A stretch of 64,000 nt of DNA from NCBI RefSeq assembly GCF_022012395.1, contig NZ_JAKLTQ010000001.1, forward strand, positions 124,001-188,000, written 5' to 3'. Origin of the DNA: Arthrobacter hankyongi (GTDB lineage Bacteria > Actinomycetota > Actinomycetes > Actinomycetales > Micrococcaceae). A program made the position numbers and the translations under genes. This document shows positions 7,212 through 64,000 of the stretch, piece after piece; the first letter of the stretch is position 1; every line of letters begins with the position of its first letter. Under the pieces are notes generated by a model. That model had not been told where the DNA came from, did not search any database, and worked only from the letters and a program-made list of their open reading frames with translations.

Positions 7212-7630
7212 ACCAGGAGCCGCTCACGCCCGGCTGGGCGCCGGCAGATCCGCCGGCGCCAGGCCCGCAGCGGGTGCGGGTGACCGGGCCCCGGTCCGGG
7301 ACCGGCTATTCGCCCGCGCGCTTCAGCGTGTCGCGCGAACTGGACGAGCAGTCCGAGGTGGGCGAGCTGTTCATCCGCTCGCTGATCCGCTCCCAGCTGC
7401 GGCTGGCCCTGGTGGTGGCCGGCGGTTTCGGCGCGGTCGTGCTCGGTGTGCTGCTGCTGGTGCTGCTGCTGCCCGGCAACGGCGTGGCCCTGTGGACGGT
7501 CCCGCTGCCCTGGCTGCTGCTGGGGCTGGGCATCTACCCGGTGGTGCTCGGCTGCGCCGGCCTGTACCTGCGGGCCGCGGCCCGGAACGAACGCAGGTTC
7601 CGCGACCTGGTCAGCGAGTCCGAAGGATGA
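7208..7630 (+). CDS. Small two-helix membrane protein, likely symporter accessory
   Basis: Protein of 140 residues with a proline-rich N-terminus and two strong hydrophobic segments (about residues 60-85 and 97-120), then a charged tail RAAARNERRFRDLVSE. It has ATGA overlaps with the response regulator before it and with the symporter after it. Size, topology and position mirror the DUF485-symporter pair on the other side of the two-component system. I therefore infer an accessory subunit for the symporter that follows. I do not recognise a named family with certainty. Confidence 0.7.
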   Translation: MNQEPLTPGWAPADPPAPGPQRVRVTGPRSGTGYSPARFSVSRELDEQSEVGELFIRSLIRSQLRLALVVAGGFGAVVLGVLLLVLLLPGNGVALWTVPLPWLLLGLGIYPVVLGCAGLYLRAAARNERRFRDLVSESEG

Positions 7631-9081
7631 ATCCTGCCGCCGGATTCGCGGCGCTGGCCGCGGTCTGCACCGCGACGCTGCTGATCGGTGTCTACGGCCT
7701 GCGTATCTCGCGCACCACCGGCGACTTCTACGTGGCCTCCCGGACCGTTCCGCCGTGGTGGAATGCTTCGGCCATCGGCGGCGAGTACCTGTCCGCCGCC
7801 AGCTTCCTGGGCGTCGCCGGGCTGATCCTGGTCACCGGGCTGCAGGGGCTGTGGTTCCCGATCGGCTACACCGCCGGCTACCTGATGCTGCTGCTGTTCG
7901 TCGCCGCCCCGCTGCGCCGCTCGGGCGCCTACACCATCCCCGATTTCGCCGCCGCGCGGCTGGACTCCCGGCCGGCGCGGCTGGTGACCAGCGCGGTGGT
8001 GGTCGTGGTCGGCTGGCTCTACATCGTGCCGCAGTTGCACGGGGCGGCGCTGACCGTGCGGATCACCACCGGCCTGCCCGGCTGGGCGGGCGCCGCCGTC
8101 GTCGTCCTGGTGGTGCTCTGTTCGGTGGTCACCGGCGGGATGCGCTCTATCACCTTTGTGCAGGCCTTCCAGTTCTGGCTCAAGCTCACCGCCCTGGCCG
8201 TGCCGCTGTTCTTTATCCTCCTGCTGCTGGGCGCCGGTTCGCGTCCCATCACCGACGGCGGCGCGGCTTTCCAGGCCGACGGCGGCGGGCCGGTGTACCC
8301 GACGATTTCCCTGCTGGTCGCGTTGCTCTTCGGCACGCTCGGCCTGCCGCATGTGCTGGTGCGCTTCTATACCAATCCGAACGGACCGGCCGCGCGCCGG
8401 ACCACGCTGATCGTGCTCGGGCTGCTCTCGGTGTTCTACCTGTTCCCCACCGTGTACGGGGTACTCGGACGGGTCTATACGCCGGATTTGGCCGCCGCGG
8501 GGCAGGCCGATGCCACGGTCCTGCTGCTGCCGGGCCGGCTCATCGGCGGCGCGTCCGGGGACCTGCTCACCGCACTGGTCACCGCCGGGGCCTTCGCCGC
8601 CTTCCTCTCCACCACCTCCGGGCTGGTGGTCTCGTTGGCGGGCGTGGTCAGCCAGGACCTGTTCCGGGGCAGCGTCAGCGGATTCCGCTGGGCGGCGGTC
8701 CTCTCGGCGCTGGTGCCGCTGGCAGTGGCCCTGTCGACCGAATCCCTGGCCCTGGCCGGCACCGTCGGGACCGTCTTCGCGTTTACCGCCTCGACCATCT
8801 GCCCGTTGCTGCTGCTGGGCATTTGGTGGCGGGGCCTCACCGCCGCGGGCGCGATTGCCGGGATGCTGACCGGGGCGGCCCTCTGTGGCGGCGCAATCCT
8901 GCTGGCAGCCACCCTGGGCGGGGCGCTGGGGCCGTTCCGCGAACTGCTCGAGGCACCCGCCGCGTGGAGCGTGCCGGCGGCATTCCTGACCACCATCGTC
9001 GTCTCGCGCGCGACGGCGGACCGGCGGCCGGCCTCCGCGTCCCGCATGATGGCGCGCCTGCACGCGCCGGAACGGAGCTGA
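7627..9081 (+). CDS. Sodium:solute symporter family protein
   Basis: Membrane protein of 484 residues in the SSS family, with about 13 hydrophobic segments. The signature TTGDFYVASRTVPPWWNASA followed by IGGEYLSAASFLGVAG corresponds to the sodium-binding/first-helix region of ActP-like permeases. It is clearly related to the symporter at 3011-4639 but shorter and diverged. The start ATG overlaps the previous stop (ATGA). It is the last gene of the kinase-regulator-accessory-symporter set, which suggests a sensor-controlled uptake system for a small carboxylate. The substrate cannot be read from sequence. Confidence 0.88.
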   Translation: MNPAAGFAALAAVCTATLLIGVYGLRISRTTGDFYVASRTVPPWWNASAIGGEYLSAASFLGVAGLILVTGLQGLWFPIGYTAGYLMLLLFVAAPLRRSGAYTIPDFAAARLDSRPARLVTSAVVVVVGWLYIVPQLHGAALTVRITTGLPGWAGAAVVVLVVLCSVVTGGMRSITFVQAFQFWLKLTALAVPLFFILLLLGAGSRPITDGGAAFQADGGGPVYPTISLLVALLFGTLGLPHVLVRFYTNPNGPAARRTTLIVLGLLSVFYLFPTVYGVLGRVYTPDLAAAGQADATVLLLPGRLIGGASGDLLTALVTAGAFAAFLSTTSGLVVSLAGVVSQDLFRGSVSGFRWAAVLSALVPLAVALSTESLALAGTVGTVFAFTASTICPLLLLGIWWRGLTAAGAIAGMLTGAALCGGAILLAATLGGALGPFRELLEAPAAWSVPAAFLTTIVVSRATADRRPASASRMMARLHAPERS

Positions 9082-9782: not shown

Positions 9783-10703
9783 TCAGCCAGCACCGGGAGC
9801 CAGCAGCACTGCCAGCAGGTAACCCACGGGCGCGGCGAAGGTGATTGAATCCAACCGGTCCATGACACCGCCGTGCCCGGGCAGCAGGTTGCTCATGTCC
9901 TTGATGCCCAGTTCCCGCTTGACCATGGATTCGGCCAGGTCCCCGGCAGTCGAGGCAGCCACCGTGGCAATGGCCAGTACCAGCCCGAACCACCACTGCA
10001 GGTGCAGGATGAGCACGGAACAGAGCACGCCCACCATGATCGCGCCGCCCACGGACCCGGCAAAGCCCTCCCAGGACTTCTTGGGACTGATCTTCGGCGC
10101 CATCGGGTGCTTGCCGAACAACGCACCGACCAGATAGCCGAACGTGTCATTGGCCACCACCAGCAGCAGCATGGTGGCAACCTTGAGCGCGCCGTCGGGT
10201 TCGCTCAGCAGCAGCAGAGCGCAGCTGATGAACAACGGCACCCAGGACAGGACGAAGACCCCGCCCATGGCCCGGCGCCCGGCGTCCCGGGGGGATTCCA
10301 GGCAGGTGTAGATCAGCAGCGCCAGGCCGGTGGCCACGAGGGTGAAGCACAGTGCCTCGGGCCCGCCGTAGAAGGCCGCGAACGGCATGGCCGCCGCCCC
10401 GGCAAACAGCGGGGGCATCGGGATGTGGATACCCTTGACGGCCAAGGCACGGGAGACTTCCCATGTCCCCACCACCGAGAAGGCGGCAACCACCGCGACA
10501 AAGGCGGAGGGCATCACGAACAGGCCAACCAGGACGATGGCCAGCATGGCCAGCCCCACCCCGATCGCCGCGGGCAGGTCGCGCCCTGCCCGGGACGGCC
10601 GGGTGGTGCGGCGCCGGGCCCGGCGGACTGCCTCGGAAGGCAGCGAGCCGGGGCCGGCGGTGTGCCGTCCGCCAGCCTGTGTCGAAGGCTGGTCCTCGCT
10701 CAT
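9783..10703 (-). CDS. cdsA: Phosphatidate cytidylyltransferase
   Basis: Makes CDP-diacylglycerol from phosphatidate and CTP, the branch point to all phospholipids, in the cytoplasmic membrane. The protein has 306 residues with a basic, Pro/Ser-rich soluble N-terminus of about 45 residues and about eight membrane segments. The family signature is present near the C-terminus (residues about 262-285): SMVKRELGIKDMSNLLPGHG followed by GVMDRLD. The ATG overlaps the frr stop by one base (TGATG), so the two are translated together. The order rpsB-tsf-pyrH-frr-cdsA is conserved in actinobacteria. Confidence 0.95.
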   Translation of the reverse strand: MSEDQPSTQAGGRHTAGPGSLPSEAVRRARRRTTRPSRAGRDLPAAIGVGLAMLAIVLVGLFVMPSAFVAVVAAFSVVGTWEVSRALAVKGIHIPMPPLFAGAAAMPFAAFYGGPEALCFTLVATGLALLIYTCLESPRDAGRRAMGGVFVLSWVPLFISCALLLLSEPDGALKVATMLLLVVANDTFGYLVGALFGKHPMAPKISPKKSWEGFAGSVGGAIMVGVLCSVLILHLQWWFGLVLAIATVAASTAGDLAESMVKRELGIKDMSNLLPGHGGVMDRLDSITFAAPVGYLLAVLLAPGAG

Positions 10704-11260
10704 CAGACCTCGAGAAGCTCCGCTTCCTTACGCTTGAGCAGCTCGTCGATATTGTCGGTGTGGGCCTTCGTCCTGGCGTCCAGGTCCTTCTCGGCCCGCG
10801 CGCCCTCGTCCTCGCCGATCTCGCCGTCCTTGACCAGCTTGCCGATGCTGTCCATGGCCTTCCGGCGGATGTTCCGGACGGAGACCCGGGCGTCCTCGGC
10901 CTTGCTGCGGACCACCTTGACATACTCCTTGCGGCGTTCCTCGGTCAGCTCCGGCAGGACCACGCGGATCACGTTGCCGTCGTTGGCGGGGTTCGCGCCG
11001 ATGTCGGACTCGCGCAGCGCCTTCTCGATGTCGTTCAGCGCGCTCTTGTCGTAGGGGGTGATCAGCAGGGTGCGGGCTTCCGGGTTCTGGAACGATGCCA
11101 GCTGCTGCAGCGGCGTCGGCGTGCCGTAGTAGTTCACGGTGACCTTGGAAAACAGCGCCGGGTTGGCTCGGCCGGTCCGGATGGTGGCGAAGTCCTCCTT
11201 GGCCACCTCCACCGCCTTGTCCATCTTCTCGGCGGCCTCATGCAAGGTTTCTTCGATCAC
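10703..11260 (-). CDS. frr: Ribosome recycling factor
   Basis: Protein of 185 residues, the standard length. With EF-G it splits post-termination ribosomes. Conserved stretches are visible: [14 protein letters not shown] near residue 25 and [19 protein letters not shown] near 120. The family-typical N-terminus ([20 protein letters not shown]) is also present. The start follows AAGGAGACACCG. The gene overlaps the downstream cdsA by one base. It lies 215 bases downstream of pyrH, and that gap contains an interspersed repeat. Confidence 0.97.
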
Positions 11261-61647: not shown

Positions 61648-61704
61648 CAGGCCATTAAGCCATGAACCCATCGGCCCGCGATGCCAACCGCGGACGCTAT
61701 TTCG

Positions 61705-63009
61705 TCAGCGCCTCGATCCAGCGCGCCGCCGCAGCCATCTTGCCGCCAGCTTGGCCAGCATTGCTGCCAGCTTCTGCAACAGCACGGCCAGGCCCAGCAG
61801 CGGCAGGCAGAGCATCACGATGGACAGCACGGCCAGGATGAATTCCGCCAGCGCGCCGTCAGCCACCGCCTGGGCCAACAGCGACGCATGGTGCTGCATG
61901 GCGTGGAAGGTCCTGCTCAGGATGACCGGCAGGCTGATCAGCATCCAGCCCAGGCCAAGGACCAGGGTGGGGACCACCGTGAGGACCCACAGCGTGACGA
62001 TCCACCGCGCGACGGGCTTCATTTCCGCCACCAGCGGGTGCACCGGCCGCCCCGGAAGCAGGCTAGCCAGCACCGGCTTCACCCGGGCGAACAGGTCAGG
62101 CACACCGGCCAGGTCCGCCAGCACAAAGTAGCCGTCGAAACGTACCGTGGGGATCAACTGCTGGACCATCTCAAGTTGCATGACCACCACGACCAGCAGC
62201 AGCAAGCCATTGCCGGTTAGCAGGTAGCCGGTACCGGCAGCGAGCAGGCACCATACGTTGAAATACAGCCCGCCCAGGTCGGTGCGCAGTCGTCCGGCCC
62301 GCCCCAGCCGGTAGGAATCGGTGACGTTGGTGAAGAAGGCCGGAAAGACGATGTAGATGCCATAGCCGATGACGCCGGGCCGGGCACCCCCGTAGCGGCA
62401 GGCAGTGGCATGGCCCAACTCGTGGATGAGCGCCCCGACCATAAGCAGGACCATCAAGCCGAGCAGCAGTACCGGGGCCTTCAACACGTCGTCCAGTGCC
62501 TGCAGGATCCCGCCCTGCAGGAACAGCACCACGTCCAGCACCACCAGCGCCGCCAGGACCAGCACCACAATGGGCGGATAGAAGGCCGGCCTGAGCGCGC
62601 CCGCCAGGGCATTGACCAGGGGTTCGGGCAGGAGCGTCCCGCGGAACCGCAGGGACAGCAGCGGATCCGCCCGCGGCTGCACGGCCTCCGGGTCCGGCCG
62701 CCGGTTGCCGTCGGCCACCAGGCCCAGCGGGCTCAGTGTCCCGCTGATCAGCTGGTTCAGTCCCTCGGTACTCAGCCGGCGGCCAAAGGACCGGGTGACG
62801 GCGTCGGCCACCTCCTCCGGGGCGCGCCCGGGTGCCAGTTCCCTGACCACCAGATGCAGCAGCTCGGAAACCTGGAGCAGCTGACCGTCGCCGCGCCGGA
62901 CCAGGTAGGTGGTGTCCACCAGACCGGAACCGGATGCGGCCCCGAGCAGTTGGACGCCGTCGGCCCGGACCCAGCGCGGAGCGGGGACGGTGCTGGAATC
63001 AGTTGTCAT
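61705..63009 (-). CDS. M50-type membrane metalloprotease with PqqD-like N-terminus
   Basis: Protein of 434 residues. Residues 10-105 look like a small PqqD/RRE-like domain (RRGDGQLLQVSELLHLVVRE, then SFGRRLSTEGLNQLISGTLS). Then come about eight membrane segments. The zinc site is ALIHELGHATACRYGG (HELGH at 196-200), and a third ligand is likely in VRFDGYFVLADLAGVPDL. This is the layout of peptide zinc metalloproteases (YydH/MpaP-like) that process ribosomally made peptides. The gene lies 93 bases downstream of a 62-residue peptide gene on the same strand. The ATG at 63009 follows GAGGCAAG. Confidence 0.83.
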   Translation of the reverse strand: MTTDSSTVPAPRWVRADGVQLLGAASGSGLVDTTYLVRRGDGQLLQVSELLHLVVRELAPGRAPEEVADAVTRSFGRRLSTEGLNQLISGTLSPLGLVADGNRRPDPEAVQPRADPLLSLRFRGTLLPEPLVNALAGALRPAFYPPIVVLVLAALVVLDVVLFLQGGILQALDDVLKAPVLLLGLMVLLMVGALIHELGHATACRYGGARPGVIGYGIYIVFPAFFTNVTDSYRLGRAGRLRTDLGGLYFNVWCLLAAGTGYLLTGNGLLLLVVVVMQLEMVQQLIPTVRFDGYFVLADLAGVPDLFARVKPVLASLLPGRPVHPLVAEMKPVARWIVTLWVLTVVPTLVLGLGWMLISLPVILSRTFHAMQHHASLLAQAVADGALAEFILAVLSIVMLCLPLLGLAVLLQKLAAMLAKLAARWLRRRAGSRR

Positions 63010-63049
63010 CTTGCCTCACCTGACGAGTTGGAATCCGGGGCACGGCCGA

Positions 63050-63089
63050 ATGCGTCCGGTACCGCCGCGGGCGGTGGTACCGGACGCAT
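63050..63089 (-). other. Strong intercistronic hairpin between peptide and protease genes
   Basis: Perfect 14-bp inverted repeat (63050-63063 with 63076-63089), extended inside by a short GCCGC/GCGGT-type pairing, no U-tract. It is 13 bases after the peptide stop and 41 bases before the protease start. Such hairpins after precursor genes partly terminate or stabilise the message so that the peptide is made in excess over the enzyme. Confidence 0.7.
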
Positions 63090-63102
63090 CCAGCTGCCGT
63101 GG

Positions 63103-63291
63103 CTACTGCCCGACGAGGATCGTCTGCACAGCGGCGCTGTTGGCCTCCGACAGAGCGGTCGCGACGTTCAGCGCCACCGAAGAGTTCGATGCGTAAACGT
63201 CGGCCCAGTTGAAATTGAAGAAGAGCGTCTCACGCACGGGCAGCAGCTCCGCACGCTGTGCCTCCAGCTCAACCAAAGTCACTTCGTTCAT
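63103..63291 (-). CDS. 62-residue precursor-like peptide (candidate RiPP precursor)
   Basis: Short gene with a very strong ribosome site (GGAGGAGGTG) eight bases before the ATG at 63291. The N-terminal part is leader-like and acidic: MNEVTLVELEAQRAEL, then LPVRETL at residues 17-23 and FFNFNWADVYA. The C-terminal 29 residues are small, Ser/Asn/Ala/Val-rich, start ASNSSVALNVATA and end AAVQTILVGQ, with no Cys. No signal peptide or homologous enzyme fold is seen. Placed directly before a PqqD-like/M50 protease gene, it is best read as the precursor of a processed peptide. I do not recognise its class; it lacks the Cys/Thr pattern of lanthipeptides. Confidence 0.75.
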   Translation of the reverse strand: MNEVTLVELEAQRAELLPVRETLFFNFNWADVYASNSSVALNVATALSEANSAAVQTILVGQ

Positions 63292-63321
63292 TGTTCTTTC
63301 ACCTCCTCCCCCCAACTCGCT

Positions 63322-63407
63322 TTGACAACCCCGAGTCAACACCGGGCACCGTCTTGGAACCGTCCCTGTCCCGTCCCGCCTGCGTTTTTCTTGCGTCTTT
63401 CCTGCGT
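63322..63407. promoter_or_regulatory. Control region with an inverted repeat and three 11-bp-spaced direct repeats
   Basis: In the 290-base gap between the peptide and the divergent CxxC protein, TTGAC (63322-63326) and GTCAA (63335-63339) form an inverted repeat. YTGCGT then occurs at 63380, 63391 and 63402, exactly 11 bases apart, each followed by a T/C-rich stretch. Direct repeats at one helical turn are typical of SARP-type or response-regulator operators. A TACAGT box near 63535 may be the -10 of the plus-strand gene. Confidence 0.55.
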
Positions 63408-63581
63408 TTGGGCTTCGTCGCGGTTTCTGCGCAGGTTTGCCGCTGCAGGAGTGTGGGATTGCCGTTGGCCGCGGATATGAGCTGCACCGGGCCACCCGCG
63501 CCCGCCGGCCCTTCGCGGAAACCGGCCGCGCCGATACAGTCCTTCAGGCACGTTCCATCCAGCAACAGAAAGGTTCCACGA

Positions 63582-64000
63582 ATGAGAGGCATTTCCTCCG
63601 CTGCAGGCATCATCCTGGCGCTGGCCACCGGCTCCGTCCTGGCCGGCGGCACCACACCCGCAGGCGCCGCGGCTGGCAACTGGACATCGCACGGCACCGA
63701 ACGCGCCGAACGGGCCGGCGCTGCCTGGGGACGCAGCCTGGATTCGGCCAGTTCGGCACAGCCGTCGGCAGCCCGGCCCGAGGTGCGTGATACGTCGCAG
63801 GACCTGGTGCATGTGTCCGGCGGCCCGGCGAAGGCCGATGCCTTGGCGGCGGCGTCGGCGGCCTGCGACGGTTGTTCCGGTGACGCCACCACGCTGCAGG
63901 TGGCCTATTTCGACGGCGGCAAGGGCACTGCAGCTGCGGACAATGTCGCCTCGGCCTGGGCAACCTGCGCCGGCTGCTCGGCCTCCGCGGTGTCGGTACA
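63582..64000 (+). CDS. Secreted protein with repeated CxxC motifs (partial, runs off the window)
   Basis: The open frame starts at ATG 63582 after AGAAAGG and continues past the right edge; 139 codons are visible. An N-terminal signal peptide (GIILALATGSVLAGG...TPAGAAA) precedes a low-complexity Ala/Ser/Arg region. From residue 90 there are repeats of about 34 residues: AACDGCSGDATTLQVAYF with C95/C98, and WATCAGCSASAVSV with C129/C132. The paired cysteines suggest disulfides or metal binding outside the membrane. It is divergent from the peptide-protease pair and shares its control region. I do not know a function for this family. Confidence 0.78.
   Translation, partial: MRGISSAAGIILALATGSVLAGGTTPAGAAAGNWTSHGTERAERAGAAWGRSLDSASSAQPSAARPEVRDTSQDLVHVSGGPAKADALAAASAACDGCSGDATTLQVAYFDGGKGTAAADNVASAWATCAGCSASAVSV

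What the first reader, a model, noticed from the sequence alone, without database searches (positions are those of the whole stretch)
61705..64000. Compact peptide-protease-CxxC cassette that looks like an undescribed RiPP-type system
Seen: a 62-residue peptide gene with an exceptionally strong ribosome site, an M50-type protease with a PqqD-like N-terminal region directly after it, and a divergent secreted protein with CxxC repeats sharing the promoter region. Known: PqqD-like domains bind leader peptides, and M50 proteases trim RiPP precursors (for example in daptide and YydF-type systems). Inferred: the peptide is recognised through its acidic leader and LPVRETL motif, then cut near the Ala/Ser/Asn-rich C-terminal part. 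No lanthionine, YcaO or radical-SAM enzyme is visible in the window, so the modification may be proteolysis only or be encoded beyond base 64000.
Basis: partly seen in the sequence, partly recalled or inferred. Interest (0 to 1): 0.85.

Follow-up and report, generated by a model that had tools for sequence, protein, structure and literature searches.

The report
Protease-matured hairpin peptide cassette, undescribed
A bacterium of an Arthrobacter-like group carries an inserted gene cassette that makes small peptides, a membrane protease that probably trims them, and a secreted partner that seems built from the same repeat; related cassettes occur in other actinobacteria and I found no description of them.

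Summary
The 62-aa peptide, the RRE/PqqD-M50 protease and the divergent CxxC protein are present; past base 64000 the genome adds two more peptides and a SARP-type regulator. In 9 of 9 other genomes of the genus the flanking genes gatB and APH are neighbours, so this is a 4.6-kb inserted cassette, with no tailoring enzyme or transporter recognised in it. Fifteen distinct loci (own included) carry at least two such peptides beside the protease (36 peptides, found partly by the LPxR motif). In a 396-genome phylum sample 21 of 22 peptide genomes have the protease. AlphaFold/Foldseek support an RRE fold on the protease N-terminus. New here: the peptide core matches the third CxxC repeat of the secreted protein, with Thr and Ser where that has the Cys pair (clear in 5 of 10 proteins); a relative's CxxC protein models as three beta-hairpins with CxxC at each turn. 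Best reading: leader-guided M50 processing releases Asn/Gln/Ala-rich hairpin peptides that assemble with a partner of the same module, perhaps an amyloid-like surface polymer. Processing is well supported; assembly is inference. Daptide and epipeptide membership not met. No Pfam or NCBIfam family hit above cut-off for the peptides and CxxC proteins scanned.

The parts
61705..63009 (-). RRE(PqqD-like)-M50 membrane metalloprotease, 434 aa
   Evidence: HELGH and R-x-DGY invariant; AF2/Foldseek RRE N-terminus; NF041824 daptide_HExxH 103.4 bits, cutoff 300
63010..63102 (-). strong stem-loop between pep1 and protease gene (possible attenuator or mRNA processing site)
   Evidence: -52.9 kcal/mol, z -5.0, 0 of 200 shuffles as good; in the 15 loci z runs from -4.3 to 0.6, so not general
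63103..63291 (-). pep1, type-A precursor, 62 aa; leader with ELLPVRETL, hairpin-like core
63292..63400 (-). pep1 promoter region: AGGAGGTGA ribosome site; heptamer direct repeats GGGACGG-GACA-GGGACGG-TTCC-AAGACGG, 11-bp period (SARP-type)
   Evidence: (2 of 200 shuffles reach 7/7)
63582..64000 (+). CxxC protein with signal-like N-terminus, 254 aa, three CxxC repeats (gene runs on to 64346, outside the window)
   Evidence: hairpins and C-terminal helices from the model of a relative
61672..64000 (.). part inside the window of the 4571-bp inserted cassette between APH and gatB. It runs on to 66242 and holds, outside the window: terminator-like stem-loop 64371-64402, pep3 64513-64710 (-), pep2 64776-64964 (-), SARP/BTAD regulator 65392-66159 (+)
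   Evidence: gatB and APH neighbours in 9 of 9 other genomes of the genus; length; outer genes from L005; stem-loop (1 found, shuffles give 3.5 on average, so a consensus match only)

Best explanation
A leader-guided peptide maturation cassette. (1) The SARP switches on the peptide operons through 11-bp-spaced heptamer repeats (inferred from the sites). (2) Precursors without an evident signal peptide carry an acidic leader with ELLPxRE(T)L, which the RRE domain of the membrane M50 protease binds (fold supported; binding inferred). (3) The M50 site cuts between leader and core at or in the membrane and may help release the core outside; no transporter is recognised in the cassette (inferred by analogy with EpeP). 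(4) The released core of about 35 residues is an Asn/Gln/Ala-rich hairpin of the same kind as the CxxC repeats of the co-encoded secreted protein, with Thr/Ser where that protein has the Cys pair (sequence match shown; hairpin from a modest AF2 model of a relative's CxxC protein). (5) Type-A and type-B cores assemble with each other and with the CxxC protein, which acts as a base or nucleator, into an extracellular amyloid-like or surface polymer (inference, the least certain step).
For: Steps 2-3: RRE fold; invariant M50 active site; two to four peptides beside the protease in 15 of 15 loci, LPxR in 35 of 36 peptides with one LVER (the scan used the motif); co-occurrence 21 of 22, p 7e-30, and 15 of 16, p 1e-22, without the six genomes that gave rows to the peptide profile. 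Step 1: 7/7 heptamer repeats upstream of the peptide that leads the protease operon in 9 of 15 loci against 2 of the 21 other peptides; SARP found in 14 of 15 loci, the other being a contig end. Steps 4-5: peptide-core HMM hits CxxC repeat 3 of the own protein at 19.3 bits, 0 of 500 shuffles, and four others at 0 of 500; hhalign E 7e-4 (probability 26%) onto the last CxxC repeat; the peptide profile hits a CxxC protein at E 3.2e-5 in genome G203, which gave no row to it; AF2 puts each CxxC at a hairpin turn; Foldseek's top-ranked, though weak, hit is FapC functional amyloid; four core positions (N, A, A, Q) are the same in 36 of 36 cores, recalling the Asn/Gln network reported for FapC (PMC12392863 passages); larger group-2 precursors give two profile matches in several genomes.
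Against: No experiment. The core-to-CxxC match is weak in 5 of 10 CxxC proteins (2, 3, 10, 36 and 78 of 500 shuffles reach it), was tested after I had seen the likeness by eye, and ran without HMMER's composition correction, the shuffles standing in for it. The FapC match has prob 0.07 and TM about 0.1, so the global fold does not match, and the CxxC model is only pLDDT 64.6 on five sequences. Hydrophobic-moment analysis gave no strand signal. The RRE hit has E 0.063, and GdmN chains, not RRE proteins as far as I recall, stand among the next hits (prob 0.30-0.54). A SARP is more usual for secondary metabolites (recalled). In 5 of 15 loci no CxxC gene was found in the stretch held, one of them a contig end. 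4 of 25 genomes with the strong M50 have no peptide by profile or motif scan, and in G360 protease and peptides lie on different contigs.
Confidence: 0.45

Rival explanations
1. A two-component antimicrobial RiPP-like system: type-A and type-B peptides act together on the membranes of competitors after M50 leader removal, under SARP control, like daptides without the amine end group.
For: Two or more peptides in each of 15 loci, mostly one of each type; the protease's nearest named family is the daptide M50 (103.4 bits); SARP control; pep1 and pep2 differ only in the core; daptides also come as several precursors with RRE-peptidase fusions, and some combinations were more haemolytic than single peptides (PMC10036551 passages).
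Against: No ABC transporter or tailoring gene recognised in the insert; cores still alignable outside the class, peptides there 33-40% identical to pep1; larger precursors seem to carry two copies of the module; core resembles the co-encoded CxxC protein. The same paper saw no significant growth inhibition by daptides in its agar diffusion assay, so haemolysis alone would not settle it.
Confidence: 0.25
2. A signalling system: the M50 releases peptide pheromones that are sensed outside, with the CxxC protein as binder, and feed back on the SARP.
For: Small peptides with a regulator in the same cassette; pep1 and pep2 share promoter repeats.
Against: The SARP shows no sensor domain in the family scan; no receptor or kinase recognised in the insert; cores are large and conserved; three precursors, two nearly the same.
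Confidence: 0.12
3. An envelope quality-control or adaptor role: the peptides are short-lived membrane ligands degraded by the M50, and the CxxC protein is a redox or metal sensor.
For: M50 proteases can work in regulated intramembrane proteolysis (recalled); CxxC pairs conserved.
Against: RRE on the protease and leader-core anatomy of the peptides; no membrane segment seen in the peptides by eye; up to four peptide genes in one locus; two CxxC proteins have lost the pair in the middle repeat.
Confidence: 0.08

Closest known systems
Daptides (RRE-M50 protease MpaP/DapP, NF041824)
   Same: RRE fused to a membrane M50 peptidase; several small precursors per cluster; leader with a short conserved motif
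   Different: The four family proteases scanned score 101-112 bits against a cutoff of 300; leader ELLPxRE, not ELExMEAP; no C-terminal Thr; no aminotransferase, dehydrogenase, methyltransferase or ABC transporter recognised in the insert
Epipeptides (M50 YydH/EpeP/LiaK, NF058609)
   Same: M50 intramembrane protease next to a small precursor; EpeP is thought to cut and export (PMC10885120 passages)
   Different: 50.9 bits against a cutoff of 225; no radical SAM enzyme or ABC transporter recognised in the insert (that epipeptide clusters have them is recalled)
Fap and curli functional amyloids
   Same: Asn/Gln-rich imperfect beta repeats; subunit plus nucleator built of like repeats; a protease in the Fap operon (PMC12392863 and PMC12822426 passages)
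   Different: No Pfam or NCBIfam hit for the three window peptides; one module per precursor in the window's family; leader/RRE/M50 route; structural match weak
Chaplins (PF03777)
   Same: Small surface peptides of actinobacteria (recalled); one diverged relative scores 15.5 bits, cut-off 21, E 0.016
   Different: No hit for the window's peptides; LPxRE leader and M50 instead of an evident signal peptide

Membership tests
RiPP (broad sense) | precursor with leader recognised by an RRE protein encoded beside it | tested here: inconclusive
   peptides beside an RRE-M50 protein in 15 of 15 loci and RRE fold supported; recognition itself not tested
RiPP (broad sense) | enzyme that modifies residues of the core | tested here: not met
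   none recognised in the 4.57-kb insert, whose ends are set by the empty site in 9 of 9 relatives; enzymes elsewhere in the genome not searched for
Daptide | protease reaches the NF041824 cutoff of 300 bits | tested here: not met
   103.4 bits
Daptide | C-terminal Thr and ELExMEAP leader | tested here: not met
   0 of 36 peptides end in Thr, 0 of 36 hold MEAP; definition from PMC10036551 passages
Daptide | DapB-type RRE protein (NF041823) in the genome | tested here: inconclusive
   0 matches in the own genome, but the 14 control genomes gave none either
Epipeptide | protease reaches the NF058609 cutoff of 225 bits | tested here: not met
   50.9 bits
Epipeptide | radical SAM epimerase beside the precursor (recalled) | tested here: not met
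   no such gene recognised in the insert
Curli/Fap amyloid | Pfam/NCBIfam repeat match | tested here: not met
   0 families at E 1 for the three window peptides
Curli/Fap amyloid | forms cross-beta fibres | not testable with these tools
   needs protein; only a weak Foldseek hit of a relative's CxxC model to FapC
Chaplin | PF03777 above its gathering score | tested here: not met
   window peptides: none; one distant variant 15.5 bits against 21
SARP-regulated cluster | BTAD regulator in the cluster | tested here: met
   PF03704 73.7 bits
SARP-regulated cluster | 11-bp-period heptamer repeats at the promoter (rule recalled) | tested here: met
   own pep1 7/7, 2 of 200 shuffles; pep2 6/7, 29 of 200; 9 of 15 loci 7/7

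The most novel reading that the evidence does not exclude
A previously undescribed actinobacterial way of building an extracellular fibre or coat: subunits are made as leader peptides, recognised by an RRE, cut and released by an intramembrane M50 protease, and assembled on a secreted CxxC protein made of the same hairpin module. That would be RiPP-type processing used to make a structural polymer rather than a small natural product.
Probability: 0.35. Interest if true: 0.88.

Novelty: new variant of a known kind. Interest (0 to 1): 0.72.

Why it matters
On a Streptomyces plasmid the peptide, protease and CxxC genes are all labelled hypothetical protein, and the peptides and CxxC proteins scanned have no Pfam or NCBIfam family above cut-off. 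Yet the system recurs in the phylum: strong M50 relatives in 25 and peptides in 22 of 396 sampled genomes. If the reading holds, it links RRE/M50 leader processing to an extracellular hairpin assembly, gives a compact testable route for releasing self-assembling peptides from Gram-positive cells, and defines new families for annotation.

Tried and rejected
Daptide or epipeptide filing: protease far below both cutoffs and hallmark genes not recognised in the insert. A tailoring enzyme past base 64000: not supported, the insert ends at gatB. Hydrophobic-moment test of helix against strand in 36 cores: no signal either way (alpha mean z -0.33, beta -0.41; 0 and 1 of 36 above 1.64). PDB sequence searches with the M50 and CxxC profiles: no match at E 1 or better. 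NF041823 in the own genome: no match, but its controls were silent too. A GTTGNC-N5-GTTGNC promoter repeat noticed first was set aside for the heptamers, so that choice is after the fact. One search printed a probability for the pep1/pep2 pattern that assumed 12 and 0 differences; one search counts 14 and 1, so it is not used. models the CxxC protein of a relative (L047), not the window's own, since the window cuts its gene.

I assume that searches drew the same 396 genomes; the handles they list agree. The 300-bit line between strong and weak M50 matches was set after seeing the scores (complete matches end at 316 bits, the next is 133). Literature: nine full-text searches, of which I saw the listed titles and abstract starts (11 of 11, 15 of 4,619, 15 of 72, 15 of 20, 12 of 292, 6 of 121, 6 of 10, 12 of 22, 10 of 11 papers); no listed paper appears to describe this system. 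Passages only were seen of PMC10885120, PMC12392863, PMC12822426, PMC10036551, PMC12710340 and PMC7470986; in PMC7794033 five terms were sought and not found. Supplements were not searched.

Scripts that failed and were repaired. Not read out: the large protein and precursor of the ninth group-2 locus, L044 (one search printed 8 of 9).
Full report
OBSERVATION. The peptide (63103-63291 -), the protease (61705-63009 -) and the start of the CxxC protein (63582 +) are as described. The ribosome site AGGAGGTGA is a 9-nt perfect anti-SD match; 14 of 36 peptide genes of the family have one of 7 nt or more. A 93-nt gap with a very stable stem-loop separates peptide and protease (-52.9 kcal/mol, z -5.0); other loci vary (z -3.7 to 0.6).

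BEYOND THE WINDOW. The 18-kb locus continues with the end of the CxxC gene, a terminator-like stem-loop, pep3 and pep2 on the minus strand, a BTAD/SARP regulator (PF03704), then gatB and gatA (names given by me from the translations). pep2 is a near-copy of pep1. Codons 1-36 are identical, the 105 bases upstream differ once, and all 14 differing bases of the gene lie in codons 37-63 (five amino-acid changes, four silent codons and the stop). So promoter and leader are held constant while the core differs.

AN INSERTED CASSETTE. In 9 of 9 other genomes of the genus, gatB is followed by the APH gene within about 90 to 360 bases, and tblastn finds none of the cassette genes in the 10-kb stretches held. 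In the window's genome 4571 bp lie between them. I recognise no transporter or modification enzyme among them; an immunity gene could not be recognised as such. A plasmid of Streptomyces sp. NBC_00557 typed as mobilizable carries peptide, M50 and CxxC protein together, all called hypothetical protein.

RELATIVES. All 15 have two to four peptides (36 in all; picked with an LPxR-type motif, one by a variant seen), 14 have the SARP (the other is a contig end), and 10 have the CxxC gene in the stretch held. Nine further loci (L036-L044) have a larger protein. In the 8 read out it is 786-872 aa, M50 followed by a CxxC region, and a 223-304 aa precursor-like ORF with ALPDKEV and repeated core-like stretches comes first. 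Genomes outside the class carry runs of up to four peptides of the form LPEREEMSLINANLAAPVNAAVAANVLSDDSVAYANAEQ.

CO-OCCURRENCE. In the 396-genome phylum sample, strong M50 relatives (300 bits or more) occur in 25 genomes, peptides in 22 and the CxxC domain in 16. Peptide and M50 coincide in 21 of 22 (p 7e-30); 15 of the 16 CxxC genomes have peptides; all three occur in 14. Leaving out the six genomes that gave rows to the peptide profile, it is 15 of 16 (p 1e-22); some of the rest gave rows to the M50 profile. The exception, G203, has peptides and CxxC gene on two short contigs. In G360 protease and peptides lie on different contigs. Four M50 genomes lack a peptide by profile, and a motif scan of the stretches held (3.7 to 15 kb) found none; that scan also found none beside the M50 of G360 and of G556. 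CxxC genome G242 has neither peptide nor strong M50. The 26 genomes with only weak M50 matches had no peptide match.

PROTEASE. The AF2 model (pLDDT 75.8, pTM 0.63) has strands 20-25, 34-38, 44-48 and helices 49-57, 64-75, 81-92 at the N-terminus. Foldseek's best hit is the lasso RRE TbiB1 with leader peptide (prob 0.99, E 0.063, TMt 0.57). SkfB, an McbBCD chain and ThcOx, RRE-bearing by recall, follow at prob 0.20-0.51, among unrelated chains such as GdmN. I take the RRE fold as supported and leader binding as inferred.

PEPTIDE AND CXXC PROTEIN SHARE A MODULE. The core N-x-A-x-A-x-N-x-x-T-x-x-S-x-x-x-A-x-A-x-Q of type-B peptides lines up without gaps with N-x-A-x-A-x-N-x-x-C-x-x-C-x-x-x-A-x-A-x-Q of the third CxxC repeat. 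A profile of 36 cores scores 19.3 bits on the own protein (0 of 500 shuffles), with 0 of 500 also for four other proteins; the remaining five give 2, 3, 10, 36 and 78 of 500. Profile-profile comparison gives E 7e-4, probability 26%. A genome search with the peptide profile hit a CxxC protein at E 3.2e-5 (G203). In two CxxC proteins the middle repeat has itself lost its cysteines. AF2 of the L047 relative (pLDDT 64.6) makes three hairpins with CxxC at each turn. Its top-ranked Foldseek hit is the functional amyloid FapC, but weakly (E 0.009, prob 0.07, TM about 0.1).

REGULATION. Seven-of-seven heptamer repeats with an 11-bp period stand upstream of the peptide leading the protease operon in 9 of 15 loci, against 2 of the other 21 peptides. 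The rule that SARPs bind such repeats is recalled.

MECHANISM AND RIVALS. Leader recognition by the RRE and cutting by the M50 I hold at about 0.8. Release without a transporter follows the view reported for EpeP (PMC10885120, passages). Assembly with the CxxC protein is the open step (about 0.45). A two-peptide antimicrobial remains the main rival.

NOVELTY. The cassette works like an RRE-M50 peptide maturation system but fails the daptide and epipeptide tests. The peptides and CxxC proteins scanned reach no Pfam or NCBIfam cut-off. Nine literature searches of open-access papers listed no description (lists capped), nor did passages of two RRE papers.

Noticed in passing
L162 8336-8620 -, L163 7842-8351 -, L166 7668-7982 +: Diverged peptides with the same leader but chaplin-like cores (VQVPIGVAANVCGV...); one reaches Pfam ChpA-C at E 0.016, below the cut-off.
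   Followed up: partly
L083 4997-5842, L086 8666-9442, L089 7961-8764: A putative lipoprotein of one recurring kind sits beside the CxxC gene in three loci outside the class; it reminded me of LppX/LprG (recalled), but the L086 copy, the only one scanned, has no Pfam or NCBIfam hit above cut-off.
   Followed up: partly
L086 12828-13055 -, L083 8612-8812 +, L090 7607-7897 -: Small basic proteins with a core-like stretch (such as INAVIAANVGEKGSVSHVSSKQRIVQR in L086) but no LPxRE leader (the L086 one has no family hit).
   Followed up: partly
L032 6593-6853 +, L048 4134-4547 +: A small conserved-looking protein (V-I-R-I-W / V-L-R-V-W ...) before the SARP; a similar reading frame stands in L030 within 7579-8289. 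No family hit for the L032 copy.
   Followed up: no
L030 about 9980-11256 +: A MinD-like ATPase reading frame (by eye, KGGVGKTT) lies between M50 and CxxC gene in one locus.
   Followed up: no
L187 2500-2727 and 4398-4658 +: Streptomyces changanensis plasmid: like leader and M50, but glycine-rich cores, so leader and protease may serve other cores.
   Followed up: no
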